DNA of 64,000 bases from Bradyrhizobium sp. CCBAU 53351. Its GTDB lineage: Bacteria; Pseudomonadota; Alphaproteobacteria; Rhizobiales; Xanthobacteraceae. Under the pieces are notes generated by a model. The model did no database searches. It was not told where the DNA came from and saw nothing but the letters and a program-made list of their open reading frames with translations. Made by a program: the position numbers and the translations under genes. Shown in pieces: positions 32,716 to 50,566 of the stretch. The stretch spans positions 4,677,501 to 4,741,500 of the forward strand of contig NZ_CP030059.1 of assembly GCF_015291745.1 (NCBI RefSeq). The letters run 5' to 3'. Position 1 is the first letter of the stretch; each line of letters begins with the position of its first letter.

Positions 32716-32818
32716 CGATATTGCCCCATTGGATCGAGTGATCGGTGTGATGTCGGGCAGCTTCGTAATAAGGCACGTCACTGCGTACGGTGGGTGGAAG
32801 GCGAAGCTTGGCAGCGTT

Positions 32819-34048: not shown

Positions 34049-34416
34049 GGCTTGCTCGCGTCAGGTAGCACCACGGACGGATATCCTTGCGGCATCCGGC
34101 TCTCGTCCTTCGGCGCGGGCGTCTGGCCCGCGACTGGATCGGAACCCCGAGATGCGGCAGCACTGTCCTTCCTGCCAAAGAAGCGACGCCGGTTTTCAGC
34201 CCAAACTCTTTGGCAATGCTGATAGCCAGTGACATCGTCTGAAGTGACGGTGCGACAGCGGGCGAGATCGGAACCGCCTACGTCAGTGGTCTGCTCTGCC
34301 TTTGTCGGTGCAGACGTATCTTCTCCACCACGAAGCTGGATCGTGCAGGCTGCGACGACCAGTATCCCGACTGATGTGAGTAGCGATAACGCCTTGAATG
34401 GACCCGTGTCAGTCAT
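34045..34416 (-). CDS. trbK: Putative entry-exclusion lipoprotein, TrbK-alternative type
   Basis: A 123-residue protein with an N-terminal hydrophobic segment ending in a lipobox-like VVAAC (ALSLLTSVGILVVAACTIQL), suggesting a lipoprotein. A small conserved core follows: DLARCRTVTSDDVTGYQHCQ then RVWAENRRRFFG. The C-terminus is Pro/Ser-rich. It sits between trbJ and trbL, overlapping both by 1 and 4 bases, the place of TrbK. By family analogy it blocks entry of a second copy of the same element. Sequence similarity to IncP TrbK is slight, so the label rests on position and the RVWAENRRRFF core. Confidence 0.75.
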   Translation of the reverse strand: MTDTGPFKALSLLTSVGILVVAACTIQLRGGEDTSAPTKAEQTTDVGGSDLARCRTVTSDDVTGYQHCQRVWAENRRRFFGRKDSAAASRGSDPVAGQTPAPKDESRMPQGYPSVVLPDASKP

Positions 34417-35147
34417 CAGTGGAACATCCGCACGTCTTGGGATTGATAGCCCTGTCCTGGTGTCAGAAACCGTCGGAGTTGTTCTCGGCCCTGGTCTTGG
34501 GCTGAGGCGCGTTGAGCCGCTTCAAGGCTCTGCGCCCTGCCCTGTGCCGTCACGACAGCGGTGAGATCGGCGAGCTGCTGCGCGTTCAGCGCGAGAATCT
34601 GATTGCCAGCCTGCGTCGCCTGCAGGCCGCCGCTAGCGGCTTGGCTTGACGTTACGAGCGCGGACGTCTGGATGCGATTGGTATCGAGGTTGCCGACGAT
34701 GCCGGCCTGAACCCGGAGCGCGTCTTGCGTCGCGGCATAGGAATTTTGCCACCGCGATTGAGCATTGGCGACTAAAAGCAGATTCGACTGCCTGCCAGTC
34801 GCCGGCGCATAGCTGGTCGAAAACGCGCGATCAATCTGCTGGACGTCGTAGGCGATCCGCTGAGCCTGGGCCAGCAATTGCTGGGTCCGTTGGATCGATG
34901 CTTGCAGTTGCTGCAAGGACGAGTATGGCAGGCTTGCCAAATTCTTCGCCTGATTGATCAGCATCTGCGCCTCGTTCTGCAGCGAGGTGATCTGGTTGTT
35001 GATCTGCTGCAGTTCCCGCGCGGCGGTCAGGACGTTCTGGACGTAATTGTTGGGATCAAAGACGATCCACTGTGCCCGCGCAGGCGCTGAGACGCCAAGC
35101 GTGAGGGCGACGGCGCCGGCAGCCAGCAGAGCGCTAAGGCGACTCAT
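34416..35147 (-). CDS. trbJ: Conjugal transfer protein TrbJ (VirB5-like)
   Basis: A 243-residue secreted/periplasmic protein. The signal peptide ends near SAPARAQWIVFDPNNYVQN, the typical TrbJ mature start. It is followed by long amphipathic helices with Gln-rich segments (AARELQQINNQITSLQNEAQ, TQQLLAQAQRIAYDVQQIDR). It is thought to form the pilus-tip/adhesion component. The start overlaps the trbE stop (ATGA). Confidence 0.93.
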   Translation of the reverse strand: MSRLSALLAAGAVALTLGVSAPARAQWIVFDPNNYVQNVLTAARELQQINNQITSLQNEAQMLINQAKNLASLPYSSLQQLQASIQRTQQLLAQAQRIAYDVQQIDRAFSTSYAPATGRQSNLLLVANAQSRWQNSYAATQDALRVQAGIVGNLDTNRIQTSALVTSSQAASGGLQATQAGNQILALNAQQLADLTAVVTAQGRAQSLEAAQRASAQDQGREQLRRFLTPGQGYQSQDVRMFH

Positions 35148-37585
35148 AGCGATCTCTCCAAATTGCCGAGATTGGGGATCAGGTCCAGCGCCCAGGAGAC
35201 GCCACGGTGCTGGAGCCAGGCGGGCACGAAGCCGTCACGTCCATGTTCAGCGAACAGTTGCCCGATAGCAGCCTGATCGGTCTTGGAAGAGGCTGCCGTA
35301 AAGGCCAGCGCAACTTCGCCGAGACCCAGTTCGAACATCCGGTTGCCGCGACGGGACTGGCAATAGTAGTCGCGCTTCGGGGTGGCTCGGCTCAGAAGCT
35401 CGATCTGTCGGTCATTGAGGCCGAAGCGACGGTAGATAGCTGATATCTGCGGTTCGATCGCCCGCTCGTTCGGCAGCAACAGGCGCGTCGGGCAGCTTTC
35501 GATGATCGCCGGCGCGATCGCCGAGCCATCGATGTCCGATAGCGACTGAGTGGCGAAGATGACCGACGCGTTCTTCTTCCGAAGTGTCTTCAGCCATTCC
35601 CGGAGCTGGCCAGCAAAATCCTCGTCGTCGAGAGCAAGCCACCCCTCATCGATAATGAGAAGTGTGGGCCGACCATCGAGACGGTCTCCAATGCGATGGA
35701 AAAGGTAGGCCAGCACGGCCGGGGCCGCGCTCGTTCCGATCAACCCCTCGGTCTCAAATGCCTGGACCGAGGACTCGCCAAGGCGCTCGAATTCGGCGTC
35801 GAGCAAGCGCCCTGACGGACCGCCCAGGCAGTAGGGCTGCAAGGCACGCTTCAGGGAGTTGGATTGCAGGAGGACCGACAGGCCGGTCAGGGTGCGTTCC
35901 TCCCTCGGCGCCGAAGCGAGAGACGTCAATGCCGACCACAGGTGATCCTTGACCTCCGGGGTGATCTCGATCTTTTCCCGCGCCAGGATTGCCGCGATCC
36001 ATTCCGTCGCCCACCCTCGCTCGGAAGGATCGTCGATCCAGGCCAACGGCTGCAGGGCGACGGGGTTTTCGTCCCCGTCAGACAGCGCGCCGCCGAGATC
36101 ATGCCAGTCGCCGTCCATGGCAAGTGCGGCCGCCCTGATCGAACCACCAAAGTCGAACGCAAAGACCTGAGAGTTCGGGTAACGGCGGAACTGCAGCGCC
36201 ATTAGCGCCAGCAACACCGATTTGCCAGCCCCTGTCGGTCCCACCACGAGGGTATGGCCGACGTCGCCGACATGGAGGGAGAACCGGAATGGGGTCGATC
36301 CCTCGGTCTTGCCAAATAGAAGCGGCGGGCCCTTCAAATGCAGATCCCTCGCCTCGCCCGCCCATACCGCCGACATAGGGATCATGTGGGCGAGGTTGAG
36401 AGTCGAAACCGGCGGCTGCCGCACATTGGCATAGACATGACCTGGCAGGCTGCCGAGCCAGGCTTCGACGGCGTTCACCGTCTCGATCATGCAGGTGAAA
36501 TCGCGGCCTTGAATGACTTTCTCGACCAGCCGCAGCTTTTCGTCGGCTGCACCGGGATCCCCGTCCCAGACGGTGATGGTCGCCGTGACAAAGGCTTGTC
36601 CGATCTGATCCGAACCCAGTTCCTGCAACGCGGCGTCGGCATCGATCGCCTTGTTGTGTGCGTCGGTATCGAGCAGCGTCGACGCCTCGTTGGTCATGAC
36701 CTCCTTGAGGATCGCGCCAATTGATTTTCTCTTTGCGAACCACTGGCGGCGGATTTTGGTCAGCAGTTTGGTGGCATCGGTCTTGTCGAGCATGATCGCG
36801 CGCGTCGACCAGCGGTACGAAAACGCCAGGCGATTCAGATCATCCAGAATTCCCGGCGTCGTCGTGCCCGGGAAGCCGACGATCGTGAGAACTCGCATAT
36901 TGGCTGAGCCCAGCATCGGCTCGAGCCCGCCGGTCAGCGGCTGGTCAGCCAACAGAGCATCGATGTACATGGGAATTTCGGGCACGCGAACGCGATGACG
37001 CTTGGTCGAAATCGTCGAATGCAAATAGGTCAGCGTGTCCTGATCATCGAGCCAGCCGCATTCCGGCATGAAACCTTCAAGGAGCTGAAGCACACGGGTG
37101 GTTTGATCGGCAAACCCGCGGAGCACCTCGCGAGCGTCTGCTGCCACAGTCCGATCGCGCCCCTCGTAGAGCAGTCGCTCTGCCCGGGCAGCTCCCTCCT
37201 CCGGTGGCAGATAGAGGAAGGTCAGGAAGTAGCTGGACTCATAGTGGGCGCCTGCCTCCTCGAACTGTGCTCTGCGCTCGGCGTCGACCAGTGCAGACGC
37301 GACATCCGGAAAAGTGTTCGGCGGGTAGCTACCGGCAAAATGGCGCTGCGCCTCAACGAACACGGCCCAGCCGGATCCAAGGCGGCGCAAGGCGTTGTTC
37401 AGACGACCGGCGACGCCGGCAAGTTCCGCCGGCACAGCGCTGTCGAGGTCAGGTCCCCGGAACTTTGCCGTCCGCTGGAACGAACCGTCCTTATTGAGGA
37501 TGATTCCCTCATCAACCAGGGCTGCCCAAGGCAGGAAGTCCGCGAGACGGGCGTTGGAATGGCGATATTCGGCAAGGTTCATCAT
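35144..37585 (-). CDS. trbE: Conjugal transfer ATPase TrbE (VirB4-like)
   Basis: An 813-residue VirB4-type ATPase that energises pilus assembly and substrate transfer. Walker A is VVGPTGAGKSVLLALM and Walker B is PTLLIIDEGWLALDDEDFA. The N-terminal domain matches TrbE (MMNLAEYRHSNARLADFLPW, HFAGSYPPNTFPDVASALVD). Two adjacent ATGs are possible; the first is used. It lies 10 bp after trbD. Length is typical for the family. Confidence 0.95.
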   Translation of the reverse strand: MMNLAEYRHSNARLADFLPWAALVDEGIILNKDGSFQRTAKFRGPDLDSAVPAELAGVAGRLNNALRRLGSGWAVFVEAQRHFAGSYPPNTFPDVASALVDAERRAQFEEAGAHYESSYFLTFLYLPPEEGAARAERLLYEGRDRTVAADAREVLRGFADQTTRVLQLLEGFMPECGWLDDQDTLTYLHSTISTKRHRVRVPEIPMYIDALLADQPLTGGLEPMLGSANMRVLTIVGFPGTTTPGILDDLNRLAFSYRWSTRAIMLDKTDATKLLTKIRRQWFAKRKSIGAILKEVMTNEASTLLDTDAHNKAIDADAALQELGSDQIGQAFVTATITVWDGDPGAADEKLRLVEKVIQGRDFTCMIETVNAVEAWLGSLPGHVYANVRQPPVSTLNLAHMIPMSAVWAGEARDLHLKGPPLLFGKTEGSTPFRFSLHVGDVGHTLVVGPTGAGKSVLLALMALQFRRYPNSQVFAFDFGGSIRAAALAMDGDWHDLGGALSDGDENPVALQPLAWIDDPSERGWATEWIAAILAREKIEITPEVKDHLWSALTSLASAPREERTLTGLSVLLQSNSLKRALQPYCLGGPSGRLLDAEFERLGESSVQAFETEGLIGTSAAPAVLAYLFHRIGDRLDGRPTLLIIDEGWLALDDEDFAGQLREWLKTLRKKNASVIFATQSLSDIDGSAIAPAIIESCPTRLLLPNERAIEPQISAIYRRFGLNDRQIELLSRATPKRDYYCQSRRGNRMFELGLGEVALAFTAASSKTDQAAIGQLFAEHGRDGFVPAWLQHRGVSWALDLIPNLGNLERSL

Positions 37586-37595
37586 GACGAGAGGC

Positions 37596-37859
37596 TCAGA
37601 TGTTGAGATGACCGGGAATGCGCAGATGTCGGCGCACCACATCGACGAAGGCGGGATCGCGCTTGGCGGCCCAGACGGCAGCCATGTGGCCGATGAACCA
37701 GAGGACGAGACCCGCAATCCACAGCCGCAGTCCAAGTCCGAGGGCAGCCGCCAGCGTGCCGTTGACGATAGCAACCGATCGCGGCGCGCCGCCCATCAGG
37801 ATCGGCTCGGTGAGCGCGCGATGAACGGGCACGACAAAACCTGCGACTGGCTCATCCAT
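37596..37859 (-). CDS. trbD: Conjugal transfer protein TrbD (VirB3-like)
   Basis: An 87-residue inner-membrane protein, MDEPVAGFVVPVHRALTEPI, then LMGGAPRSVAIVNGTLAAAL. It has one or two hydrophobic helices and the C-terminal DPAFVDVVRRHLRIPGHL, which matches VirB3/TrbD. The ATG overlaps the trbC stop by one base (TGATG), indicating coupling. In frame, a longer reading upstream is just trbC antisense-free overlap without homology. Confidence 0.93.
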   Translation of the reverse strand: MDEPVAGFVVPVHRALTEPILMGGAPRSVAIVNGTLAAALGLGLRLWIAGLVLWFIGHMAAVWAAKRDPAFVDVVRRHLRIPGHLNI

Positions 37860-38185
37860 CAGATCACCACGCCGCCGCCGAAGGAGAAGAACGACAGAAA
37901 GAAGCTCGAGGCCGCGAACGCGATCGACAGGCCGAACACGATCTGGATCAGCCTGCGAAATCCACCCGATGAATCGCCGAACGCGAGCGTCAGCCCGGTG
38001 ACGACAATGATGATGACGGCGATGATTTTGGCGACGGGGCCTTCGACCGACTGCAGGATTTGATTGAGCGGCTGCTCCCACGGCATGTTCGAGCCAGCCG
38101 CCCATGCCGGCGCCGTCGTCAGAAAAACCGTGATGGAAGCCGTCAGTGAAGCGGCTTCTCGAAGAAAGCGAAATTGCGGACGCAT
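37859..38185 (-). CDS. trbC: Conjugal transfer prepilin TrbC (VirB2-like)
   Basis: A 108-residue prepilin. A signal peptide (ending near APAWAAGSNMPWEQPL) is followed by two hydrophobic helices (VAKIIAVIIIVVTGLTLAFG and the C-terminal LIQIVFGLSIAFAASSFFLS). By analogy to IncP TrbC it is matured, possibly cyclised, by the TraF peptidase encoded at 46.3 kb. It follows trbB by one base. Confidence 0.93.
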   Translation of the reverse strand: MRPQFRFLREAASLTASITVFLTTAPAWAAGSNMPWEQPLNQILQSVEGPVAKIIAVIIIVVTGLTLAFGDSSGGFRRLIQIVFGLSIAFAASSFFLSFFSFGGGVVI

Positions 38186-38186
38186 G

Positions 38187-39161
38187 TCAGTCTCCTGCTG
38201 GTGAAACGCTGTAGTCGCCGTTAGCCCCAAGCCCCGTGACGAGGGCGAGCTCGGTGAGGCGACGATCGGCGCCGCGACCGGCGAGCACGGCGACGAGGTT
38301 GATGGTCTCTGCGATGAGGGCACGCGGAACTGTGATGACGGCTTCCTGGATGAGCTGCTCGAGCCGCCGTAGCGCGCCGAGCGCGGTGCCAGCATGGATG
38401 GTGCCGATGCCGCCGGGATGGCCGGTACCCCAGGCCTTGAGCAAGTCGAGCGCTTCGGCGCCCCGGACCTCGCCGATCGGGATACGGTCAGGGCGCAGTC
38501 GAAGCGAGGAGCGGACAAGGTCAGATAGCGTCGCTACGCCGTCCTTGGTCCGCAGCGCAACGAGATTGGGCGCCTTGCATTGGAGTTCGCGTGTATCTTC
38601 AATCAGCACGACCCGATCGGAGGTCTTTGCCACCTCGGCCAAGAGCGCGTTGGTCAACGTTGTCTTGCCAGTCGACGTCCCCCCAGCGACGAGGATGTTC
38701 TTGCGCGCGGCGACCGCAGCCCTTAAGGCGCTGGCCTGATCCGACGTCATCGTTCCCGCGGCGACATAGTCGTCGAGTGTGAAGACCGCGACCGCGGGCT
38801 TACGGATAGCGAAGGCAGGAGCCGCAACGACTGGAGGTAACAGCCCTTCGAAGCGTTCGCCGGTCCCAGGTAGCTCGGCAGACACGCGTGGTGAGCCAGC
38901 ATGCACCTCCGCGCCTACATGGTGTGCTACCAGACGAACGATGCGCTCGCCGTCCGCCGCGGACAACGTTTCGCCGGTATCAGTGAGGCCACTCGACAGC
39001 CGATCAATCCACAACCGCCCATCCGGATTGAGCATGACCTCGATGATTGCGTCGTCTTCCAGGTAACCCGCAATGGCCGCACCAAGTGCGCTACGCAGCA
39101 TTCGCGCACCACGCGAATTCGCCTCCGATTGAAAGGAATGGATTGCCACCGCCGCCCCCAC
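38187..39161 (-). CDS. trbB: Conjugal transfer ATPase TrbB (VirB11-like)
   Basis: A 324-residue VirB11-type hexameric traffic ATPase. The Walker A is [20 protein letters not shown]. The Asp box reads [12 protein letters not shown], the Walker B region [20 protein letters not shown], and the His box [20 protein letters not shown]. The start is uncertain: GTG 39161, GTG 39149 (with GGGGGCG upstream) or ATG 39101 ([16 protein letters not shown]) are all possible. It is the first gene of the trb operon proper. A 217-bp gap and a foreign MFS gene separate it from the tra genes. Confidence 0.94.
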
Positions 39162-41282: not shown

Positions 41283-43265
41283 TCACAGCTCCATGCCGTC
41301 ATTCGGGTCCATGGCGACCTGACGGGCGACGCCACGCATCTGCTGACGGAGAAGTCGCGATTGGCGTACTGCATCCTCGTCGTCGTCAAGAACAACGGCA
41401 AATTCCTCTGCCGGCGTTGAATCGGTCGTCTCCTTGACGATCGCAACGTGATCGGGAAGCTCGGGCTCGCGACGAAGCCCGCTGTTCGCCGTGTCTTCCT
41501 CTGACTGCTCCGCCCTGCTGGTCGCTGCCGGCGTAAGGGTTCCAAGCGTCGACCAACCGTCCGCCCGCGATGACCGGCCGGAGGCCGCAGGATCTGGCGG
41601 CGGCAGGACGCGTTCGGAGAACCGCCGATCCTCGTAGTAGCGCACCTTCTTGGCGCGGATCGGCGGTGTCCCTGCCACCATGACGATTTCCTCCCGCGGC
41701 GGGAGCTGCATGACCTCACCAGGGGTCAGGAGCGGCCTCGCCGTTTCCTGCCGCGAGACCATGAGGTGCCCCAGCCAGGGATTCAACCGGTGACCCGCAT
41801 AGTTCTTCATCGCCCGCATCTCGGTCGCCGTACCCAGCGCGTCTGAGACCCGCTTTGCGGTCCGCTCGTCGTTAGTCGCGAAACTGACGCGGACGTGGCA
41901 ATTGTCGAGGATCGCGTTATTCGGCCCATAGGCCTTCTCGATCTGATTGAGCGATTGCGCGATCAAAAAGCTCTTGATGCCGTAGCCCGCCATGAAGGCT
42001 AGCGCGGACTCGAAGAAATCGAGGCGCCCGAGCGCCGGGAACTCGTCGAGCATCATCAAGACACGGTGCCGGCGGTTGCTGGCGTGCAAGTCCTCGGTCA
42101 GGCGCCGGCCGATCTGGTTCAGCACCAGGCGGATCAGCGGCTTGGTCCGCGAGATGTCGGAAGGCGGCACCACGAGGTAAAGCGACGCTGGCCGGGGATC
42201 GGAGATTAGGTCTGCAATTCGCCAGTCGCAGCGACGGGTCACCTGGGCCACGACGGGATCACGGTAAAGTCCAAGGAACGACATCGCGGTAGACAGGACC
42301 CCGGAACGTTCGTTGTCGGATTTGTTGAGAAGCTCTCTCGCGGTCGAAGCGACCACGGGGTGGGCACCCTGCTCACCAAGGTGCGGCGTCGTCATCATGG
42401 CCTTCAACGTTACCTCGATCGGCCGCTTCGGGTCGGACAGAAAGGCGGCCACGCCGGCCAAGGTCTTGTCAGCCTCGGCATAGAGGACGTGGAGGATGGC
42501 ACCGACCAAGAGCGAATGACTGGTCTTCTCCCAGTGGTTCCGCTTATCGAGTGAGCCTTCGGGGTCGACCAGGACGTCGGCGACGTTCTGGACGTCGCGA
42601 ACTTCCCACTCCCCGCGTCGGACCTCGAGCAGCGGATTGTAGGCTGAGGAATTGGTGTTGGTCGGATCGAATAACAGGACGCGGCCGTGACAGGAGCGGA
42701 AACCGGCAGTCAGTTGCCAGTTCTCGCCCTTGATGTCGTGAACGATGGCCGAGCCGGGCCAAGTCAGCAGCGAGGGAACGACGAGACCGACACCCTTGCC
42801 GGACCGGGTGGGAGCAAAACACAACACGTGTTCCGGTCCATCATGGCGAACGTAGTCATCGTCGAGCTTGCCCAGCACCACGCCATCCGGACCGAGAAGA
42901 CCGGCCGCTCTCACCTCTTCCAGACCGGCCCAACGCGCCGAGCCATAGGTCTCAACATTCTTGGCCTCGCGGGCCCGCCAGACCGACATGCCGATCGCCG
43001 CCGCGATCGAAACGACGGTTCCCGACGCTGCGATGAAGGCACCTTCGACAAAGACTTGAGGCGCATAGGCGTCGTAGACGAACCACCACCAGAAGAAGAT
43101 CGGCGGATAGTAGATCTTCCAACCCCACAACTCGAACCAGGGGCGTCCAAGCTCTGCCTGATAGGCGAGCCGCCAGGCTGTCCATTCGGTTGCTCCCCAG
43201 ATGGCCGTCAAAACGATCAGGCCGACAACGATCACCTGGCCCCAGAGGATCTTGGTTCCTGACAT
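41283..43265 (-). CDS. traG: Type IV coupling protein TraG (VirD4-like)
   Basis: A 660-residue coupling ATPase that brings the relaxase-DNA complex to the Trb channel. Two N-terminal TM segments (IVVGLIVLTAIWGATEW and the stretch around FFWWWFVYDAYAP) and another near 80-100 precede the ATPase domain. Walker A is FAPTRSGKGVGLVVPSLLTW and Walker B HRVLMMLDEFPALGRL. Length and domain order are normal. It lies between the relaxase gene (37 bp) and the CopG-like gene. Confidence 0.95.
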   Translation of the reverse strand: MSGTKILWGQVIVVGLIVLTAIWGATEWTAWRLAYQAELGRPWFELWGWKIYYPPIFFWWWFVYDAYAPQVFVEGAFIAASGTVVSIAAAIGMSVWRAREAKNVETYGSARWAGLEEVRAAGLLGPDGVVLGKLDDDYVRHDGPEHVLCFAPTRSGKGVGLVVPSLLTWPGSAIVHDIKGENWQLTAGFRSCHGRVLLFDPTNTNSSAYNPLLEVRRGEWEVRDVQNVADVLVDPEGSLDKRNHWEKTSHSLLVGAILHVLYAEADKTLAGVAAFLSDPKRPIEVTLKAMMTTPHLGEQGAHPVVASTARELLNKSDNERSGVLSTAMSFLGLYRDPVVAQVTRRCDWRIADLISDPRPASLYLVVPPSDISRTKPLIRLVLNQIGRRLTEDLHASNRRHRVLMMLDEFPALGRLDFFESALAFMAGYGIKSFLIAQSLNQIEKAYGPNNAILDNCHVRVSFATNDERTAKRVSDALGTATEMRAMKNYAGHRLNPWLGHLMVSRQETARPLLTPGEVMQLPPREEIVMVAGTPPIRAKKVRYYEDRRFSERVLPPPDPAASGRSSRADGWSTLGTLTPAATSRAEQSEEDTANSGLRREPELPDHVAIVKETTDSTPAEEFAVVLDDDEDAVRQSRLLRQQMRGVARQVAMDPNDGMEL

Positions 43266-43301: not shown

Positions 43302-45065
43302 CTAGAGGCCCAGGTCGCGCTTGCGGCCGAAGCCCAATTCGATGCCGCCACCGTCCTTGATGACGCCGGTGACGTGCTGGCCGAGCCTCTTTTCGAGGTC
43401 GCGGGACCAAGGCACGAGCTGAAAGCCGAGCCCATTGTCGATCATGGCGAAACGCCCTGAGGCGAGCATCAGCCGCTGGCGATACGTGCCTGCCACATGC
43501 TCCCCGGATGCTGACTTCACGTGAGGCAGGCCGGAGTCTGCCGAGACCTTGGCTCCCACCTCATCCAGTTCGCGTCGACGCAGCGTGTTTAGCAGGTCGC
43601 GTTGCAGGATGATGCGTTGGCCCTGCCGCCGTGCCAGACCGTCCTTAATCAGATGCTCTGTCCGGGCTTCCATGGCATCGCGAGCCTCGCGACCGAATCC
43701 TCCCATGGCGAGCGGCATCGGATCGCGTTCGATCAGCCGGTGGTCGAGCCAGGTCGCCCCTTTCGCGGTGACTTGCTCACCAAGGTCAAGATCGGAACGG
43801 GTCGCCAGCATCAGCGTGGGACGCGGATCGCTAGCTTGACCGAAGCGTCGGACTTCGACGATGCCGCCGATCGGCGGCGCATGTTCGAAGGCCTCGATCC
43901 CGTGGAAGCGGACGTGATGTACACGTCCGTCGGTTCCGTCGATCACGGCGAAGGCCTCGCCGGTCAGTTCGTCATGCAGTCCTCGATCAATCAAGCGTCC
44001 GACGATCTGGGATGCCGGCGGTCCACCTTCGATGACGTAGTCGGCAACACCACGCACTTCCCCACGTTCGGCAAAAGCGCGGTGCATCGTCTTGATGATG
44101 TCGCCGCGCATGCCGAGATCGCGCAAGCTGCGTTCGGCCTCAAGCCCTACCATCCATTCGCCAGGTGCGGCGGACGCGGCAAGGCCCATCTTGTCCAGGT
44201 GCTGGAGGCGGCCAACCATCAGGCGCCGGATCTCGGGATCAGAATTGCCCGGATTATCGGGGCGAAGATCGATATAGCCGGTTTCGTCGGCTGCCAGCCG
44301 GATCTCGCGATCGAGCCGCGTCCATCGCTCCGCCGTGACTTCCCTCCCTAGCGAATTGCGGATCTCGCGCTCTGGTTTCGGACCCAGTTCGATGGCGACC
44401 AATTCCTCAGCGCGTGAGCGCAGCCCTCGGCTGATGTAGTCGCGGGAGATCACGAGATCAGCGCCATCTTCATCGACTCCCCGAGCGAGAAGATGGACGT
44501 GAGGGTTGTCCGTATTCCAGTGATCAACAGCTACCCAATCCAGCCGCGTGCCGAGGTCGATCTCCATTTGCCGGGCGAGATCGCGGGTGAAATCCCTGAG
44601 GTCGGTCATCTCGCCGGCATCCTCGGGCGAGATGATGAACCGAAAATGATGGCGATCGTCCTGGCACCGTTCCGCGAAGGCCGCGCCATCGGCGCGGTCG
44701 CTGCCGGCGTCGAACATCTCGGCTCTCTCACCGTTCCGGGTGACGCCATCGCGCTTCAGGTACGAAAGATGGGCCGTCAGCGGCGCCGAGCGGAATGCTC
44801 GTCCTTTGTGACGAACAACGCGCGCTTTCACCACGGCGCGCCGCGTCGAGCTGAACAATCGGCCGCGGCTAAACGCGAGCCTACCGCGGCCAAACGTCGA
44901 GCGTCCGAAGGCTGCGGAACGCTTGCCAGCCGCAGGCTGACCCGAGGTATGGCCAGCTTTCTTCGCGGCACGTAGCACCTGGTTGATGAAGCTCTTCGGC
45001 TTAGGCGTGCGTGTGCTGCGAATACGCCCGGGTCGAATACGCAGATCGCTGTCGCCAACGGTCAT
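43302..45065 (-). CDS. rlxS: Relaxase, RlxS/VirD2-like (MOBP type)
   Basis: A 587-residue relaxase that nicks oriT and pilots the strand. A basic N-terminus (PGRIRSTRTPKPKSF, GRGRLAFSRGRLFSSTRR) leads into the catalytic domain. APLTAHLSYLKRDGVTRNG may hold the nucleophilic Tyr. HHFRFIISPEDAGEM and WNTDNPHVHLLARGVDEDGA carry the metal-binding histidines. The C-terminal half matches the relaxase-associated DUF3363-type region. ATG 45065 is followed by MTVGDSDLRIRPGRIRS; longer readings run into the probable oriT. The best analogue is RlxS of the Mesorhizobium symbiosis ICE. Confidence 0.92.
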   Translation of the reverse strand: MTVGDSDLRIRPGRIRSTRTPKPKSFINQVLRAAKKAGHTSGQPAAGKRSAAFGRSTFGRGRLAFSRGRLFSSTRRAVVKARVVRHKGRAFRSAPLTAHLSYLKRDGVTRNGERAEMFDAGSDRADGAAFAERCQDDRHHFRFIISPEDAGEMTDLRDFTRDLARQMEIDLGTRLDWVAVDHWNTDNPHVHLLARGVDEDGADLVISRDYISRGLRSRAEELVAIELGPKPEREIRNSLGREVTAERWTRLDREIRLAADETGYIDLRPDNPGNSDPEIRRLMVGRLQHLDKMGLAASAAPGEWMVGLEAERSLRDLGMRGDIIKTMHRAFAERGEVRGVADYVIEGGPPASQIVGRLIDRGLHDELTGEAFAVIDGTDGRVHHVRFHGIEAFEHAPPIGGIVEVRRFGQASDPRPTLMLATRSDLDLGEQVTAKGATWLDHRLIERDPMPLAMGGFGREARDAMEARTEHLIKDGLARRQGQRIILQRDLLNTLRRRELDEVGAKVSADSGLPHVKSASGEHVAGTYRQRLMLASGRFAMIDNGLGFQLVPWSRDLEKRLGQHVTGVIKDGGGIELGFGRKRDLGL

Positions 45066-45483
45066 TGCCGGGCCTCGAACAGCGCTAAGGCGCCCACAGT
45101 GCCGAAAATGTCCTTGATTGCATTGTGCAAAGTACAAGGCGCGGCACGCGCCCCGACCGACCGGCACGTCAGAACCCAAGCCATGCCAATGGCTTGCGGT
45201 TCGACCGGCGAGCCCCTTTTATCTCGCCGTCCTGCCGTTGCGGTCTCCCAGTCGCCGGTTCCCGACAGAGCCGCCGTGACTTGGCAGCCAACTCGCGAAG
45301 CCCGCACTGCTTCCGAGCGCTTGCGATAGCGATCGTTACCCGAAGGGCCGAGACACCCGTAGGGTGGCTCGGTGAGGAGCGAAGCGACGAGTAGAGCGCG
45401 GGCCGAAGGCATCGCCCATACACCATCAGCACGTGCTACTTGCTTTGTGAAGCACGCCAAGGTTTGCGAACCCGCACACTTGG
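45066..45483. other. Gene-free 418 bp between relaxase and transglycosylase genes; candidate oriT
   Basis: No supportable gene on either strand. The interval directly precedes the relaxase gene, a common oriT position. It contains a strong hairpin at 45348-45372: CCGAG-a-CACCC-gta-GGGTG-g-CTCGG, ten paired bases with one opposed mismatch. Purine-rich direct motifs follow (GAGGAGCGAAGCGACGAG). The nick site cannot be assigned from sequence alone. Confidence 0.45.
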
Positions 45484-46320
45484 TCATTGCGATACTCCCG
45501 CATCCGATCGAGGGACGAACACGCCAATAGGCCGGGGAACCATGTGCGAAACACCGAGCGCCGAGATTGCAGTCGTGACACCGCGAGACGGCATGAGCGC
45601 CAGCAACCGATCGCGCGTTTTCATGAGATCGGATCGCGTGACGAATAGCGCCGCAACTGCTGATGACTGTCCGCTGGACGTCCACCTCGGCGGCAGTTCG
45701 ATCGCAAGCTGATTTGTAAGCTTTGCGACATACGCTCGCGTCTCCTCCGGCAAAGAGCCGCCTGCGAGATGCTCTTCATAGCGAGATGGTCCCGCATTGT
45801 ACGCGGCAAACACGCCAGGCGAGCCATACCGATCGAGCAGTTCGCGCAAGTAAGCCGTGCCGGCCAGAATGTTATCGTGCGGGTCGTAGGGGTCGTTCCC
45901 GAGATTGTAGCGCTCGCGAAGTTCCGTCCAAGTCGCCGGCATGATTTGCATCAGGCCCATTGCGCCTTTTGGCGATCTGGCGTGCGCGTCACCGGCACTC
46001 TCGATGCTTTGGACTGATCGGATCCAGTTCGGCGCTATCGCAAAGCGTTGTGACGCTTCATCGATGAAGCCGGCAAATGGGTGACCGGTCTGACTGATCC
46101 CCGGCTGAGCGGCTGATCCGCTCTGGGCCAAAGCAGCACCGTCGAACGCGATCAGAAGAAGCATCAGGGGCACGACAGCCCAAACGCGCGTGCCCAAGCG
46201 ACCCAAGCACCCGGTCGGGCTTGCGCCAGCCTTGCAGACACCTATCGAGATGGAGGAATGATCCCGCAATCGATCGAACACGGGAACGGCAAGGAGAGCA
46301 CGTCGAATACACACGATCAC
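45484..46320 (-). CDS. Lytic transglycosylase
   Basis: A 278-residue peptidoglycan-cleaving enzyme that opens the wall for the transfer channel. After a membrane/signal segment (about 45-63, VVPLMLLLIAFDGAALAQSG) comes the SLT domain. The catalytic Glu is in VQSIESAGDAHARSPKGAMG, followed by LMQIMPATWTEL and FAAYNAGPSRYEEHL. GTG 46320 was chosen because it overlaps the traF stop (GTGA). Cognate of VirB1/TrbN-type enzymes. Confidence 0.9.
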   Translation of the reverse strand: MIVCIRRALLAVPVFDRLRDHSSISIGVCKAGASPTGCLGRLGTRVWAVVPLMLLLIAFDGAALAQSGSAAQPGISQTGHPFAGFIDEASQRFAIAPNWIRSVQSIESAGDAHARSPKGAMGLMQIMPATWTELRERYNLGNDPYDPHDNILAGTAYLRELLDRYGSPGVFAAYNAGPSRYEEHLAGGSLPEETRAYVAKLTNQLAIELPPRWTSSGQSSAVAALFVTRSDLMKTRDRLLALMPSRGVTTAISALGVSHMVPRPIGVFVPRSDAGVSQ

Positions 46321-46829
46321 TCCTCCCACGTCCACACCGGTATCGCACGACCGATCACGCTAGATGCCGGAAGAAATCCAAAATACCGGCCATCAAGAGA
46401 TTCGTCCGACTGCCAGTTCATCAGAAATAGGTCGTCGTCGCCGACGACGCGGCAGCCCTGCCATTTCGGCAGCGGCCGGCCGCGTCCATCGCGATCCCGC
46501 GCTTCGCCCACCGCGATGGTATCGACCAAAATCGTGAGCCCGCTCCTGCAAACCGTCTGCCCTGGTAGCGCCAAGACTCGCTTGAGCATGGGGACACCGA
46601 CGGGCAAATAGCCGTTAAGGTCGAGGAAAGTCGCAAGCGGTTCCGGCGGCTGCACCGCGACCAATTCAGTGACTTGGAATTTGTCCGCCGGTCGGAGGCG
46701 GTAGAGACCTATCGGCACGCTGGCGGTTGCGTTCCAGATGTAAAGCGGAAGCGGCTCCAGGACGATCGTCGCGATGAGCGCGGCAGCGACCCCAATCGTC
46801 ACGGCCAGCATCATGAGGCGGCCCGTCAT
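46317..46829 (-). CDS. traF: TraF-type conjugative transfer signal peptidase (S26)
   Basis: A 170-residue membrane peptidase. One N-terminal TM (MMLAVTIGVAAALIATIVLE) precedes the S26 motif TASVPIGLYRLRPAD with the nucleophile Ser. The general-base Lys follows in PMLKRVLALPGQTV, and the C-terminal box is SDESLDGRYFGFLP. In IncP the TraF enzyme matures the TrbC pilin, and the same role is expected here. Overlapping stop/start pairs on both sides place it in one unit with DUF2840 and the transglycosylase. Confidence 0.93.
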   Translation of the reverse strand: MTGRLMMLAVTIGVAAALIATIVLEPLPLYIWNATASVPIGLYRLRPADKFQVTELVAVQPPEPLATFLDLNGYLPVGVPMLKRVLALPGQTVCRSGLTILVDTIAVGEARDRDGRGRPLPKWQGCRVVGDDDLFLMNWQSDESLDGRYFGFLPASSVIGRAIPVWTWEE

Positions 46830-47290
46830 CGCATCACCTTTTGGCGATGAAGCCAGGCCTGATGGCGCGCTTTCGTATACGGCCGCGGGCTTTCGTTGAC
46901 GGACAGGCGGTTATGAACGTGATGCCAATGATCAGGAGCGACATCAGCTGGATCGATGCCGAGTGCCTCAATGGCATCGGTTATTTGCAGCACTCGCTCG
47001 ACCTTCGGCCAGCCGGACAGACGCAGCAAAATCTCTCCGCCGGGTGTCACATAAGGAACCGTCGAGCAGCGCTGTCCCGGGGCGACCGCGCGCAAGATGT
47101 CGATCCGCGAAATGATCGTGCCAAAGTCGTTGGAAGTCCATCGGACGAAGGCAAAGATGCTGCCGGGCGCGAATGACAGGACACGCCGGCGCCCATCAAG
47201 CTTCCTTTCTTTGACAATGCGACCGAACCGAATGCGGTTTTCAATACGCTTCTCGAGCCACAGAACCTCCACTTCGGTGAGATCGCTCAT
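46826..47290 (-). CDS. DUF2840 protein
   Basis: A 154-residue protein, MSDLTEVEVLWLEKRIENRI, with FGRIVKERKLDGRRRVLSFA and VRWTSNDFGTIISRIDILRA. DUF2840 genes regularly lie directly upstream of traF in this kind of element, as here with a 4-base overlap. The function is unknown. In many relatives a parA gene lies just upstream; here that space (47291-47579) holds no gene. Confidence 0.88.
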   Translation of the reverse strand: MSDLTEVEVLWLEKRIENRIRFGRIVKERKLDGRRRVLSFAPGSIFAFVRWTSNDFGTIISRIDILRAVAPGQRCSTVPYVTPGGEILLRLSGWPKVERVLQITDAIEALGIDPADVAPDHWHHVHNRLSVNESPRPYTKARHQAWLHRQKVMR

Positions 47291-47431
47291 GCGACCACTC
47301 CCGGATTCTGGAACGGAGTGCGGTGAGCGTTGGGGCCAGCGAAGAACTGGCATGGCTTCTGCCGGCGAGCAGGATTGACGGCCCCCCGCTGCAAGTCACC
47401 TCTAATGCGGCTGGTCGTCTGGTCCGTTAGA

Positions 47432-47579: not shown

Positions 47580-48461
47580 TCACAGGTTGTCCTCCGAATT
47601 TTGAACGAGACCGCGCCGGCGCAGGCGTGCCGTTAAGGGAGCAACAGGCGTCGGAGCGAAGTTCAGCCGCTCCGTGCCGTTCGGATCGCGCGTGAGCACA
47701 AGCTGATAGCCGGGCAATGTCTGACGCTGGACGATCTGGCGGACGTCGTAAGCAAAATGCTTAAGCGGCGAGAGGATGCCGGACTTGGCATGGAGGTGCA
47801 GAAGATCAAAGCTCCAGCCGCTGTCCTGGCGGCCGCCATGCTTGCGCACGAGCCGATAGAGCCACCGCTCAAGCCCGCCCGTGAGCTCGAAATAGGCACG
47901 ATCGATCGTCAGCACGAGCGCTTCATCGATGACGCCAGCGTAGAACCAATCCGGCAGGATCAGCTCGATCCCAAATGGACGACCGTTTGCATCGGCCGTC
48001 TCCTTCCATTCGTTGATCCAGGAGAAGCGGTGTCGCCGTCGTTCTGCCGGCTGACGGATCGACGTCAGCACGGTCGTTGACTGAAGTCTGTCAAGACCAG
48101 CCTTCAGGCGGTCATAGTCACGTGCGCTGGTGCCGCGGCCCACAAACGTCAAAATCTCGTAAGGCGTTGCAGCCATCAGGCGCGAGGTCTTCAAGCCTGC
48201 GTCACGGGCTTCGACAATCTGGGACGCGGCCCAAATCAGAACGTCTGCATCCCAGATGGTCGCCATGCCGTGTTCCGGCACCGCTTCAACACGAATTGCG
48301 ATCGCACCCGCACGGAAATCGATCGGCACAATTCGCTTGGTCTTTGCCAGCGAAAAGAACGGATATGCCATTAGATCCTGCGCATCGCGGGGCGCAAGAT
48401 CGCCGGGTAGCGCCCGGAAGAGCTCAAGCTGATCGCGCTCGGAATGGTGTTTGCGCCGCAT
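47580..48461 (-). CDS. repA: Replication initiator protein A (RPA family)
   Basis: A 293-residue initiator of the type found on alphaproteobacterial plasmids and integrative elements. MRRKHHSERDQLELFRALPG leads into FSLAKTKRIVPIDFRAGAIA, IWDADVLIWAASQIVEARDA and TPYEILTFVGRGTSARDYDR. The winged-helix-like middle is LERWLYRLVRKHGGRQDSGW. A GTG 15 bases upstream is an alternative start. With the iterons behind it, it suggests that the excised or free element can replicate as a circle. Confidence 0.88.
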   Translation of the reverse strand: MRRKHHSERDQLELFRALPGDLAPRDAQDLMAYPFFSLAKTKRIVPIDFRAGAIAIRVEAVPEHGMATIWDADVLIWAASQIVEARDAGLKTSRLMAATPYEILTFVGRGTSARDYDRLKAGLDRLQSTTVLTSIRQPAERRRHRFSWINEWKETADANGRPFGIELILPDWFYAGVIDEALVLTIDRAYFELTGGLERWLYRLVRKHGGRQDSGWSFDLLHLHAKSGILSPLKHFAYDVRQIVQRQTLPGYQLVLTRDPNGTERLNFAPTPVAPLTARLRRRGLVQNSEDNL

Positions 48462-48483
48462 AGTCACTGCTCTCACGCGGCTA

Positions 48484-48765
48484 TTAGCGACGTTCCTGAC
48501 CTGCGTAGGGACGCAGGGCCGGATGCTTCTTGGCGGGCAGCACGGTCCCTTTGCCGGGATCGGATGTCGACGTCTTGGTGCCGCGGTCGGCCCACGCTTT
48601 CAGGTCATCGACGGCGTAGACGACACGTCCGCCAATCTTCCGGTATGTTGGTCCAGTGCCGTACGTGCGGTGCTTCTCCAGCGTGCGGCCGGAGAGGCCA
48701 AGGTAACGCGCGGCCTCCGGGGTACGCAGGAAGCGCGGGGGTAGACCGGCCATCGGATCGGACAT
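48484..48765 (-). CDS. rdfS: Small helix-turn-helix protein, probable excisionase (RdfS-like)
   Basis: A 93-residue protein with a MerR/AlpA-type winged helix: RFLRTPEAARYLGLSGRTLE, then KHRTYGTGPTYRKIGGRVVY and AVDDLKAW. The C-terminus is basic and disordered. Proteins of this type act as recombination directionality factors. In the Mesorhizobium symbiosis ICE, RdfS has this size and this position, controlled by FseA and upstream of the traF-rlxS genes. Here it lies between the FseA-like gene and repA. The name is by analogy of family and position; a plain AlpA-like regulator is the alternative. Confidence 0.7.
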   Translation of the reverse strand: MSDPMAGLPPRFLRTPEAARYLGLSGRTLEKHRTYGTGPTYRKIGGRVVYAVDDLKAWADRGTKTSTSDPGKGTVLPAKKHPALRPYAGQERR

Positions 48766-48786
48766 TTGAGGACTCCAGGATGACAG

Positions 48787-48819
48787 CGCACAACGCGTGG
48801 CGGCGCCAGCGTGTGTGCG
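48787..48819. promoter_or_regulatory. 33-bp dyad in the rdfS-like promoter region
   Basis: CGCACA-N5-TGGCG-G-CGCCA-N5-TGTGCG, symmetric about base 48803, with 11 paired bases per arm-pair interrupted by 5 unpaired. It lies about 22-54 bp upstream of the rdfS-like ATG. It is the best candidate operator for the FseA-like activator or another regulator of excision. Confidence 0.5.
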
Positions 48820-48848
48820 GTCATCATGGAGAAGCAGGTTGTCGGAGG

Positions 48849-48886
48849 GGGATGCCGAAGTTTCAGGAGGCCATTTTCGGCATCCC
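48849..48886. repeat. 11-bp inverted repeat between fseA-like and rdfS-like genes
   Basis: GGGATGCCGAA (48849-48859) and TTCGGCATCCC (48876-48886) with a 16-base loop; partial pairing continues outside into GGAGG/CCTCC. It lies 13 bp after the FseA-like stop. Without a T-tract, either a transcript-end hairpin or an upstream activator site is possible. Confidence 0.5.
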
Positions 48887-48898
48887 TCCGGGGCGGCA

Positions 48899-49483
48899 CT
48901 ACTCGTCCTTGCGCCCGGGCCGCAGAAGTTTGCGGTAACCGCCGCGCATCAACGCGAGGCCGCCTTGCACCAGGCGGATCGTTCGATTGCGCAGATCATG
49001 CGTCTTCCAGGCGCGATCGGGGATACGCTTTTTGCCGAAGAGGGCTTCGGCGATAACGCGATAACTGCCGCCGGCGCTATGCGCATCGAGCGCGCGGATC
49101 GCAGCGCTCAGGCGTTCGCGCCGCTGTTTAGATAGTGTGTGAAATGCAGGACCTGGCGCGCGTCCATTCATCGCGCGCCATAGCCGTCGGGCTGCATACG
49201 CACGTGCGTCGAAATCGCCATTAAACGGCAGTTCGGCTGCGTATGACGCGCCGAGCACCGGCGGCTCTTTGGACCAAATGCGGTGATCCACTGAACCGAT
49301 GCGCAGCACGGCATGCCAGCCGTCGACAGCGCGGCGCACCTGGCCAGCTGTAAGGTCGAGCAGTGGCTGAGACGGCGCCCCGCCGTCTTCAGGCACTGCG
49401 ACCTTGACCGGAACGACCGCCGCTAAAACCTCTGGCGCCCAAAAGATCGTCTGCTCGTCGAAGGACCTCTGCGGGTCATGGGC
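48899..49483 (-). CDS. fseA: FseA-like excision activator, C-terminal DUF2285 part (reached by +1 frameshift)
   Basis: About 194 residues read in the frame +1 to the upstream part. They begin AHDPQRSFDEQTIFWAPEVL, continue to the DUF2285 core (LSKQRRERLSAAIRALDAHS, then GGSYRVIAEALFGKKRI) and end in TIRLVQGGLALMRGGYRKLL. This frame has no ATG, and the first GTG comes 33 codons in. Upstream the frame is closed by a TGA about 40 bases before the shift point. The part is therefore expected to be made only as the tail of a ~256-residue fusion. DUF2285 is an HTH variant found in activators (FseA) and antiactivators (QseM) of ICE transfer. Confidence 0.82.
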   Translation of the reverse strand, partial: AHDPQRSFDEQTIFWAPEVLAAVVPVKVAVPEDGGAPSQPLLDLTAGQVRRAVDGWHAVLRIGSVDHRIWSKEPPVLGASYAAELPFNGDFDARAYAARRLWRAMNGRAPGPAFHTLSKQRRERLSAAIRALDAHSAGGSYRVIAEALFGKKRIPDRAWKTHDLRNRTIRLVQGGLALMRGGYRKLLRPGRKDE

Positions 49484-49670
49484 GAAAGCAGAGGCCCCAC
49501 CTCCTCCTGAACTCTGGCGTCACTTCGCCATCCGGACTGTTGGCGATCATCGCCTCAAAGTCGCGTCGATAGTCCGCATTGCGGCGGAGGCATTCCCAGG
49601 CGATGTCGGTGATTTCGGCGTCTTGTAGGCTCTTGTAGGATTCCGGCGACCGCCAGTCGAATTCAGGCAT
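49476..49670 (-). CDS. fseA: FseA-like excision activator, N-terminal DUF6499-type part
   Basis: A 64-residue frame: MPEFDWRSPESYKSLQDAEI, then TDIAWECLRRNADYRRDFEA, ending WGLCFRP and a TGA. In single-frame relatives this domain (DUF6499 type) runs directly into sequence like AHDP-FDEQTIFW-PEVL, which here continues in the +1 frame. In the Mesorhizobium symbiosis ICE the equivalent pair msi172-msi171 is joined by low-frequency +1 frameshifting to make FseA, which activates excision. The zero-frame product is a short protein without DUF2285. Confidence 0.82.
   Translation of the reverse strand: MPEFDWRSPESYKSLQDAEITDIAWECLRRNADYRRDFEAMIANSPDGEVTPEFRRRWGLCFRP
49484..49508 (-). other. Apparent +1 programmed ribosomal frameshift site
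   Basis: In mRNA sense the zero frame reads UGC UUU CGC CCA UGA. Slipping one base forward at UUU-C (tRNA-Phe pairs equally well with UUC) gives UUU GCC CAU GAC, restoring the family sequence CF-AHDP. A Shine-Dalgarno-like purine tract AGGAGGAGGUGGGG (49495-49508) lies 7 bases before UUU. That resembles the stimulator arrangement of the prfB +1 frameshift. The slip codon is at 49485-49487 and the skipped base at 49484. Confidence 0.75.
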
Positions 49671-49835: not shown

Positions 49836-50108
49836 CTACTTGGAGCCCCTGCCACGTAATAGGCGGCCCTGTTCAGTCACCCATTTGGCGCGCGCAAGAT
49901 GACTCTGATATGCGCTTCGCGCACGGTCTGGCTCTCGCTCGGGGTCCATATGCAAGACCACTCGAGCCACTTCGCGCCAGTCCGCCCCCTCACCTTCCGC
50001 CTGCAGAAGGCGAACGTACGTGACGACATGCTGTTCGTCATAGGCAGTCAGCGCCGGCTCATTCGGCGCGACATCCGCGACGTCAGGATCTAGCGGCGGC
50101 TTCGACAT
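49836..50108 (-). CDS. qseM: QseM-like small DUF2285-type protein, putative antiactivator
   Basis: A 90-residue protein: DPDVADVAPNEPALTAYDEQ, then HVVTYVRLLQAEGEGADWRE, VARVVLHMDPEREPDRARSA and YQSHLARAKWVTEQGRLL. The arrangement (A-x-Y-R/W-R-E-x-A near the centre, a conserved W/GxRxLL end) parallels the DUF2285 fold of the FseA tail. In the Mesorhizobium ICE, QseM is a small DUF2285 protein that blocks both TraR and FseA and is divergent from the XRE regulator gene qseC. The same gene arrangement is present here. ATG 50108 is used; an upstream TTG is a weaker start. Confidence 0.72.
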   Translation of the reverse strand: MSKPPLDPDVADVAPNEPALTAYDEQHVVTYVRLLQAEGEGADWREVARVVLHMDPEREPDRARSAYQSHLARAKWVTEQGRLLRGRGSK

Positions 50109-50288
50109 CAGAGACGACAATATGCGCAAGATTCAAAATCAAATGGCGAGGCGCCAGCCTCGCCGGCTCGAAGAATTCCCTGCTGCAGCATATGGCATGC
50201 CACCTCCTCGGGCGAGCGTTCTAGAAGCGGCATTTCCAATATTTTCCTTAATTAGAGCTCCGTCAGAGACCCTAAACAGCCAGGTCCG

Positions 50289-50338: not shown

Positions 50339-50566
50339 ATGGACATTCGCAAGGTCTTTGGAGCAAACGCGCGCCGATTTCGACTCGCCCTTGGCTTGAG
50401 CCAAGAGGCCGTAGCGGAACGCATGGGCGTTGACCGGGCCTTCGTGAGCAGCATGGAGCGAGGGCTTCAAAACGCGACACTGCTCACAATCTGGCAGATT
50501 GCCCAAGCGTTGGGGGTCAGGCCAGCAGATCTGCTTGAGGAGAAGGTGTCCAAAGCTCGGTCCTGA
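50339..50566 (+). CDS. qseC: XRE-family regulator, QseC-like
   Basis: A 75-residue single-domain Cro/C1-type repressor: MDIRKVFGANARRFRLALGL, with the HTH SQEAVAERMGVDRAFVSSME and RGLQNATLLTIWQIAQALGV. It is the size of restriction-modification controller (C) proteins. Divergent from the QseM-like gene across 230 bp, the arrangement of qseC/qseM in the Mesorhizobium ICE. There QseC sets a bistable switch by repressing or activating the two promoters. No ribosome-binding site is seen before the ATG, consistent with leaderless translation. The XRE fold is certain; the QseC role is inferred. Confidence 0.8.
   Translation: MDIRKVFGANARRFRLALGLSQEAVAERMGVDRAFVSSMERGLQNATLLTIWQIAQALGVRPADLLEEKVSKARS

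What the first reader, a model, noticed from the sequence alone, without database searches (positions are those of the whole stretch)
49476..49670. FseA-like excision activator appears to need a +1 ribosomal frameshift at UUU-C
A DUF6499-type frame ends in WGLCF-RP-stop. The DUF2285 part continues, in the +1 frame, with exactly the sequence expected of a single protein (CF then AHDP...). The +1 frame has no ATG and its first GTG is 33 codons late. The slip codon UUU can re-pair on UUC, and a strong Shine-Dalgarno-like tract lies 7 bases upstream, as in prfB. In the Mesorhizobium symbiosis ICE the msi172-msi171 pair is controlled this way.
Basis: partly seen in the sequence, partly recalled or inferred. 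Interest (0 to 1): 0.85.

Follow-up and report, generated by a model that had tools for sequence, protein, structure and literature searches.

The report
Known frameshift switch in gene-transfer activator
The activator that probably lets a stretch of soil-bacterium DNA move to other cells is split over two reading frames that the ribosome seems to join by slipping one base; this kind of switch is already known, but here the sequence that probably helps the slip sits in an unusual place.

Summary
A DUF6499 frame (49670-49476) ends WGLCFRP-stop; DUF2285 continues from 49483 in the +1 frame. The switch must lie in a 44-base overlap containing UUU-C (49487-49484). It is not a sequencing slip: of 240 loci with the two domains in separate ORFs, 231 are +1; in 139 non-redundant +1 sites the Phe codon is UUU in 139, against 284 of 934 other Phe codons of those genes. 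The +1 frame shows coding constraint. Neighbours fit the published FseA circuit: QseM-like and XRE genes, an FseA-box-like inverted repeat, an rdfS-like gene, relaxase and trb genes. So this is a new member of the known FseA family, whose +1 frameshift is published. Corrections: the purine tract is not placed as in prfB (it ends 7 or 10-12 bases before the slip codon, not 3), and no stop codon fills the A site. Less expected: 91 of the 139 carry UGGGGG beside the site, but one mainly Bradyrhizobium clade, window included, lacks it and keeps AGGAGG upstream with almost no synonymous change. That may be a relocated ribosome-pairing stimulator or a tandem rare-arginine signal; untested.

The parts
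49476..49670 (-). N-terminal ORF (DUF6499, PF20109), 0 frame, ATG 49670 to TGA 49478-49476
49484..49487 (-). UUU-C slip tetranucleotide (TTT 49487-49485 in the P site, re-pairing on TTC)
   Evidence: TTT in 139 of 139 non-redundant +1 sites
49476..49519 (-). overlap of the two open frames, in which the frame switch must occur
49495..49508 (-). purine tract AGGAGGAGGTGGGG; the AGGAGGTG inside it (49505-49498) ends 10 nt before UUU
   Evidence: sequence; anti-SD duplex energy -14.0 kcal/mol; synonymous diversity 0.07 at each of the two AGG codons in 55 relatives. Function inferred.
48899..49483 (-). C-terminal part (middle region + DUF2285, PF10074) in the +1 frame, stop TAG 48901-48899
48849..48886 (-). 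FseA-box-like inverted repeat: 11-nt perfect arms 48849-48859 and 48876-48886, 16 nt apart
   Evidence: architecture as published (PMC10359603, section read). Binding not tested.
48484..48765 (-). rdfS-like small HTH gene (HTH_17, PF12728), predicted first gene of the FseA-activated operon
   Evidence: domain; role inferred from position
49836..50129 (-). QseM-like antiactivator (DUF2285 only)
   Evidence: weak PF10074 match, below cut-off; matches PDB chain 7uqt_A, 'Quorum sensing master protein', E 2.2e-16
50339..50566 (+). QseC-like XRE regulator, divergent from the QseM-like gene
   Evidence: HTH_3; the QseC role is inferred from position
47580..48476 (-). RepA-type replication initiator (PF10134), downstream of the rdfS-like gene
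43302..47353 (-). DUF2840, TraF-type S26 peptidase, lytic transglycosylase and RlxS-related relaxase
   Evidence: RlxS model 574.7 bits, below its cut-off of 850
41283..43265 (-). TraG coupling protein
29799..39161 (-). trb mating-pair module (TrbI, CagX/TrbG, VirB8/TrbF, TrbL, TrbE-like, TrbB)

Best explanation
This is the fseA gene of a chromosomal conjugative module in a Bradyrhizobium-like genome. Most ribosomes read the 0 frame and release a short DUF6499 peptide. A minority, with tRNA-Phe on UUU in the P site and a sense codon (CGC) next, slip +1 onto UUC and make a 256-residue DUF6499-DUF2285 protein. A purine tract just upstream, complementary to the 16S anti-SD, probably stimulates or paces the slip. 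FseA then binds the inverted repeat right behind its own gene and switches on the rdfS-like gene and transfer operon; the QseM-like protein opposes it. Shown by sequence: frames, domains, invariant UUU, +1-frame coding constraint, tract conservation, inverted repeat. Inferred: that the shift occurs, its efficiency, the tract's role, DNA binding and target activation.
For: 231 of 240 two-ORF loci are in the +1 relation, 4 in +2, 5 in the same frame after a stop (duplicates included). UUU at 192 of 192 sites inside the overlap and 139 of 139 non-redundant ones; next base C (130) or U (9) in those 139. Of 35 single-ORF homologues, 25 carry WG and 3 of those 25 have UUU at that place. In 55 close sites the +1-frame codons 6-32 differ 11054/6103/16573 times at positions 1/2/3, and the first ATG/GTG/TTG after the slip falls anywhere from codon 19 to 59. 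A natural single-ORF homologue (P0002, 86% identical over 99%) runs through the same ...F-AHDP junction. The read-through protein matches RovC 6xz5 over residues 23-92, across the junction. QseM match 7uqt; inverted repeat.
Against: No expression, reporter or mass-spectrometry data. No RNA structure signal just after the site (mean z 0.02 and 0.12 in the two classes). The tract spacing does not match the 3 nt known to stimulate +1 shifts. Ten +1 loci lack the W..F motif and were dropped; one of 192 sites has TTTA. Three single-ORF loci have TTT at the place, two of them followed by C (L158, L259). No PF00589 or PF07508 recombinase within about 1.4 Mb on the contig, so the element may not be active.
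Confidence: 0.88

Rival explanations
1. Tandem rare arginine codons (AGG AGG AGG in frame at 49508-49500) are the real or a second +1 shift site in this clade; the ribosome shifts there and enters the DUF2285 frame before UUU.
For: The AGG codons are in frame and inside the overlap; AGG is 82 of 1336 Arg codons in 38 window genes; frameshifting at AGG_AGG is reported in E. coli (PMC5009743, passage). Tandem AGG AGG is in frame in 53 of 55 AGGAGG-class sites. Of six rows of the same 30-row clade that have neither AGGAGG nor GGG, four still have two adjacent AGA/AGG codons.
Against: UUU is kept in 55 of 55 of these sites, followed by C in 54. Of those six rows one (L275) keeps a purine tract without tandem AGA/AGG, one (L111) has neither. 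Outside the clade tandem AGG is almost absent (20 of 139 non-redundant sites in all) although the +1 relation is the same.
Confidence: 0.15
2. The two ORFs are translated separately, the second from an internal start, and the proteins act as two subunits.
For: 118 of the 120 listed homologues (of 826) are 146-210 aa, that is annotated as the C part alone from various starts. PMC9601964 says the Azorhizobium homologues have their own start and end codons (passages). In the family at large 68 of 139 non-redundant sites, and 7 of the 55 AGGAGG-class sites, do have an ATG/GTG/TTG in the open +1 frame upstream of the slip; 18 of 139 have one in +1-frame codons -7 to +9.
Against: In the window there is no such codon between the opening of the +1 frame and codon 30. 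The +1-frame constraint begins right after the slip while start positions vary; UUU and the +1 relation are kept; natural single-ORF homologues exist.
Confidence: 0.04
3. The gene is a decayed or mis-sequenced frameshifted copy.
For: Some relatives look broken (for example L057, L064, L069), and no integrase was found nearby.
Against: The same bases recur in 58 of 69 related loci and in a second copy of the same genome; both halves are under constraint.
Confidence: 0.02

Closest known systems
FseA (msi172-msi171) of ICEMlSym(R7A), Mesorhizobium
   Same: DUF6499 + DUF2285 in two overlapping frames, +1 shift at UUU after WG, QseM partner, inverted-repeat box before rdfS, RlxS/trb transfer genes (published side from PMC10359603, PMC5882170, PMC5009743)
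   Different: fseA lies directly upstream of the rdfS-like gene; no LuxR/TraR-type (PF03472) gene within about 2.3 Mb on the contig; a RepA gene follows the rdfS-like gene; AGGAGG tract instead of UGGGGG; the repeat begins 116 nt before the rdfS-like start, whereas the published logo numbers one hexamer at 62-67
prfB (release factor 2) +1 frameshift
   Same: +1 slip of a P-site tRNA at a pyrimidine-rich site downstream of an SD-like tract
   Different: UUU not CUU; sense codon not stop in the A site; tract 7-12 nt away, not 3; no sign of autoregulation by RF2
RovC (PDB 6xz5; Pfam calls the domain a T6SS transcription factor)
   Same: Sequence match over residues 23-92 (E 1.8e-6); same DUF2285/RovC domain family
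   Different: Sits here in a conjugative module, not beside a secretion system of that kind

Membership tests
FseA excision activators | DUF6499 domain with AWEFLRRN-like motif | tested here: met
   PF20109 81.4 bits; motif AWECLRRN
FseA excision activators | DUF2285 domain joined downstream | tested here: met
   PF10074 108.9 bits in the +1 frame
FseA excision activators | +1 frameshift site at UUU after WG (in about 61% of published homologues) | tested here: met
   sequence level only; 61% from PMC10359603 (passages)
FseA excision activators | FseA box: inverted hexamers 15-16 bp apart upstream of rdfS | tested here: met
   for the window: 11-nt perfect arms, 16 nt apart; same position and spacer in 42 of 154 related loci, redundant set. 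Wider control weak: in 110 non-redundant loci spacer 16 scores 46, odd spacers 15-24, but spacers 18 and 20 also 46 and 43
FseA excision activators | QseM antiactivator in the element | tested here: met
   7uqt_A, E 2.2e-16
FseA excision activators | TraR/AHL control of fseA (as on ICEMlSym R7A) | tested here: not met
   nearest PF03472 match on contig C1 is about 2.3 Mb away; whether this defines the family is doubtful, so it is not used to exclude membership
FseA excision activators | Fusion protein made; activates rdfS transcription | not testable with these tools
   needs experiment
prfB-type +1 frameshift | SD-like tract 3 nt before the slip codon | tested here: not met
   10 nt (AGGAGGUG) or 7 nt (GGGG), read from the sequence
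prfB-type +1 frameshift | stop codon in the A site | tested here: not met
   CGC here; stop in 0 of 139 non-redundant sites

The most novel reading that the evidence does not exclude
In one mainly Bradyrhizobium clade the mRNA stimulator of the FseA frameshift has moved: the family's UGGGGG beside the site is absent (Gly codon GGC or GGT, never GGG, in 55 of 55 AGGAGG sites) and an anti-SD complement AGGAGG(UG) is held 10 to 15 nt before the slip codon, a spacing so far tied to -1 shifts, or it doubles as a tandem rare-Arg signal, making a two-signal +1 site.
Probability: 0.35. Interest if true: 0.55.

Novelty: new member of a known kind. Interest (0 to 1): 0.4.

Why it matters
It adds a conserved FseA-type switch on Bradyrhizobium elements, here without a quorum-sensing gene nearby on the contig; in Mesorhizobium this switch restrains how often the element leaves the chromosome. 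The survey separates what the slip site keeps (UUU in 192 of 192 sites; GGG in the glycine codon in 91 of 139) from what the protein keeps anyway (WG, found also in 25 of 35 homologues that need no shift). That makes the role of the upstream tract directly testable and offers natural pairs of tract positions for asking how ribosome-mRNA pairing distance affects +1 shifting.

Tried and rejected
Downstream hairpin or pseudoknot as stimulator: mean folding z just after the site 0.02 (21 AGGAGG sites) and 0.12 (91 GGG sites); further off, weak negative means were seen (-0.88 at +60 to +110 in the AGGAGG class, -0.36 at +120 to +170 in the GGG class), not followed up. Immediate 0-frame stop as a stimulator: the stop is a median 18 codons away in 139 sites, so the nearby TGA here is probably a by-product of HD in the +1 frame. 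WG as a nascent-peptide signal (suggestion quoted in PMC5009743): WG is present in 25 of 35 single-ORF homologues too, so its conservation alone does not argue for that.

Anticorrelation of the two tract positions: strong in raw counts (a far tract in 10 of 91 GGG sites, 31 of 48 others) but not significant over independent pairs on the tree (median p 1). I treat it as one clade's change, not a general trade-off. The anti-SD excess has a second, weaker peak at 12-16 nt (z -10 to -14), which holds the AGGAGG class.

FseA box, wider control (110 non-redundant loci): spacer 16 in 46, odd spacers 15 to 24, but even spacers 18 and 20 in 46 and 43. Longer arms could explain the even ones (not tested), so beyond the window's own perfect repeat the broad signal is modest. 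Integrase hunt: no PF00589 or PF07508 match near the window; other recombinase families were not searched and the element's ends were not found. Structure prediction was not run, as a published model exists (PMC10359603).

Rows dropped: 28 duplicate sites and 38 N ORFs without the W..F motif, 10 of them +1 (three of these ten, L091, L262 and L263, show TTTCG one codon later); two +1 sites whose Phe codon lies outside the overlap.

Full report
What is there. The gene lies on the minus strand. Its 0 frame, from ATG 49670 to TGA 49478-49476, ends FRRRWGLCFRP-stop and is a DUF6499 domain (PF20109, 81.4 bits); the +1 frame from 49483 to 48899 is a DUF2285 domain (PF10074, 108.9 bits). The +1 frame opens 32 nt before UUU and the 0-frame stop begins 6 nt after it, so the switch is confined to 44 bases. 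The first ATG/GTG/TTG in the +1 frame is a GTG at 49396, the 30th codon.

Is it more than chance or error? Of 69 related loci in named genomes, 58 end WG[LIT]CFR[PAS]-stop with nearly the same bases; the other 11 include broken, fused and stop-less forms. The window's genome has a second copy on its 979-kb contig C2, identical at 34 of 36 site bases but at only 107 of 159 bases just upstream. PF20109 was found in 25 of 385 genomes sampled from the class, 43 of 398 from the phylum, 86 of 397 from the order and 176 of 242 from the genus. Among 283 DUF6499 frames in the 281 sequences collected, DUF2285 follows in the +1 frame in 231, in the same ORF in 35, in the same frame after a stop in 5, in the +2 frame in 4, and was not found in 8 (duplicates included). 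After removing 28 duplicates and 38 frames without the W..F motif (10 of them +1), 194 +1 sites are left, 192 with the Phe codon inside the overlap; it is TTT in all 192, followed by C (182), T (9) or A (1). In 139 sites under 85% identical, TTT is 139 of 139, against 284 of 934 other Phe codons of the same genes. Relatedness makes a formal probability too small, but the contrast is not in doubt.

Does translation enter the +1 frame here? In 55 close relatives (the AGGAGG class below), differences in +1-frame codons 6-32 fall 11054, 6103 and 16573 times on codon positions 1, 2 and 3, and the first ATG/GTG/TTG after the slip lies anywhere from codon 19 to 59. That is coding constraint ahead of any conserved start. 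In the window no such codon lies between the opening of the +1 frame and codon 30. This does not hold for the whole family: 7 of the 55 and 68 of the 139 non-redundant sites have such a codon upstream of the slip in the open +1 frame. A single-ORF homologue from B. shewense, 86% identical over 99%, runs through the same F-AHDP junction. Single-ORF homologues as a group mostly lack the site: 25 of 35 keep WG, but only 3 of those 25 have TTT at the slip position.

How it probably works. A review says that UUU-Y is especially prone to +1 shifting in bacteria even without a stop codon beside it, names UUU as the shift site in the Mesorhizobium ICE, and says only the first two bases of the glycine codon are conserved (PMC5009743, passages). 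The data here add that the third base is far from free: GGG in 91 of 139, against 257 of 2120 background Gly codons and 5 of 25 single-ORF homologues (Fisher p 3.4e-5; relatedness ignored). Pairing to the anti-SD exceeds synonymous shuffles most at 8-mers ending 2 to 6 nt before UUU (z -14 to -17.5), with a weaker second peak at 12-16 nt. The published description is UGGGGG, proposed to stall translation (PMC10359603, Discussion).

The window belongs to a clade that differs. In 55 AGGAGG sites (of 192) the Gly codon is GGC (34) or GGT (21), never GGG; AGG AGG is kept in 51 and 53 of 55, with synonymous diversity 0.07 at both codons against a mean of 0.33 over codons -50 to -8. The best duplex in the window is -14.0 kcal/mol, with its 8-mer ending 9 nt before UUU. 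On a tree of 139 C parts this state needs 3 changes: one mainly Bradyrhizobium clade, one exception inside it and one stray row outside it. Whether AGGAGG acts by rRNA pairing, as tandem rare Arg codons, or both, cannot be decided by sequence: tandem AGG AGG is in frame in 53 of 55, and of six clade rows with neither AGGAGG nor GGG, five keep a purine tract (duplex -7.3 to -9.5) but four of those five also keep two adjacent AGA/AGG codons. Conserved UUU in 55 of 55 argues that the slip itself stays at UUU. No RNA structure was seen just after the site. The trade-off between tract positions is not significant once relatedness is allowed for.

Circuit and element. Behind fseA lies a perfect 11-nt inverted repeat with a 16-nt gap (48849-48886), the architecture of the FseA box (two inverted hexamers, 16 bp apart; PMC10359603, section read). 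Same position and spacer recur in 42 of 154 related loci, but a control over 110 non-redundant loci gives 46 at spacer 16 and also 46 and 43 at spacers 18 and 20, against 15-24 at odd spacers, so the family-wide signal is modest. The repeat precedes an HTH_17 gene followed by RepA, DUF2840, TraF, a transglycosylase and an RlxS-related relaxase, much like the rdfS, traF, msi107, rlxS genes of the Mesorhizobium elements (PMC5882170 and PMC11963761, passages). Upstream, 49836-50129 matches the solved QseM chain (E 2.2e-16), with a divergent XRE gene where QseC would be expected. TraG and trb genes follow. Not found: a LuxR-type gene within about 2.3 Mb on the contig (PF03472) and a tyrosine or large serine recombinase within about 1.4 Mb (PF00589, PF07508). 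So what turns fseA on, and whether this element still excises, stays open.

Verdict. This is a new member of the published FseA family with its published +1 frameshift. Of PMC10359603 I read the outline, two sections and passages; of PMC5009743, PMC5882170, PMC12421855, PMC9601964 and PMC11963761 passages only; the 2015 PNAS paper is not held. In the listings and the passages read I saw no mention of the AGGAGG arrangement, but the key 2015 paper and all supplements were not seen. The +1 direction of AGG-AGG frameshifting is recalled; the review passage states frameshifting only. On checking, one figure of odds changed: the tandem rare-codon rival went from 0.12 to 0.15, and the best explanation from 0.90 to 0.88.

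Noticed in passing
window 48773-48831: A second inverted repeat (20-nt arms, 85% complementary, 19 nt apart) lies between the FseA-box-like repeat and the rdfS-like start codon; possibly another operator.
   Followed up: no
G000 contig C1, around the window (window = C1:4677501-4741500): A relaxase/TraG/trb/RepA module with no PF00589 or PF07508 recombinase match between about 3.27 and 7.05 Mb on the contig.
   Followed up: partly
G000 contig C2 (979,290 bp), 955960-956136: Second DUF6499/DUF2285 pair with the same site, about 21 kb from a LuxR-type gene (C2:934670); the contig has the size of the 979-kb plasmids of peanut bradyrhizobia listed.
   Followed up: partly
L282:3103-13257 (C1 just right of the window): Defence-like island: CARF-kinase-ATPase protein, Vsr endonuclease, a large protein with a weak restriction-enzyme match and a C5 methyltransferase; Ku-like and YedK-like genes beside it (these two labels are recalled from the sequence, from no call).
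   Followed up: partly
L059:3001-3777 and protein P0002: Two bradyrhizobia carry naturally single-ORF forms that reach the DUF2285 frame just upstream of the slip site (RRKGVSAFAHDP and FRRRWGSAFAHDP); if real they would escape the frameshift brake (DNA seen for L059 only).
   Followed up: partly
L158 (same genus): A single-ORF homologue that still carries a TGGGGGTTGCGATTTCCC site; either a compensated frame or an error.
   Followed up: no
L018, L022, L049, L050, L016, L020, L065: The AGGAGG form of the site also occurs in records labelled Afipia, Frankia sp. RB7 and MAGs labelled Rhizorhabdus, Sphingorhabdus and Pseudomonadota: transfer of the element, or mislabelled or mixed assemblies.
   Followed up: no
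literature, PMC9601964: The paper states that the Azorhizobium homologue has no programmed frameshift because each part has its own start codon (passage); given the family pattern this deserves rechecking.
   Followed up: no
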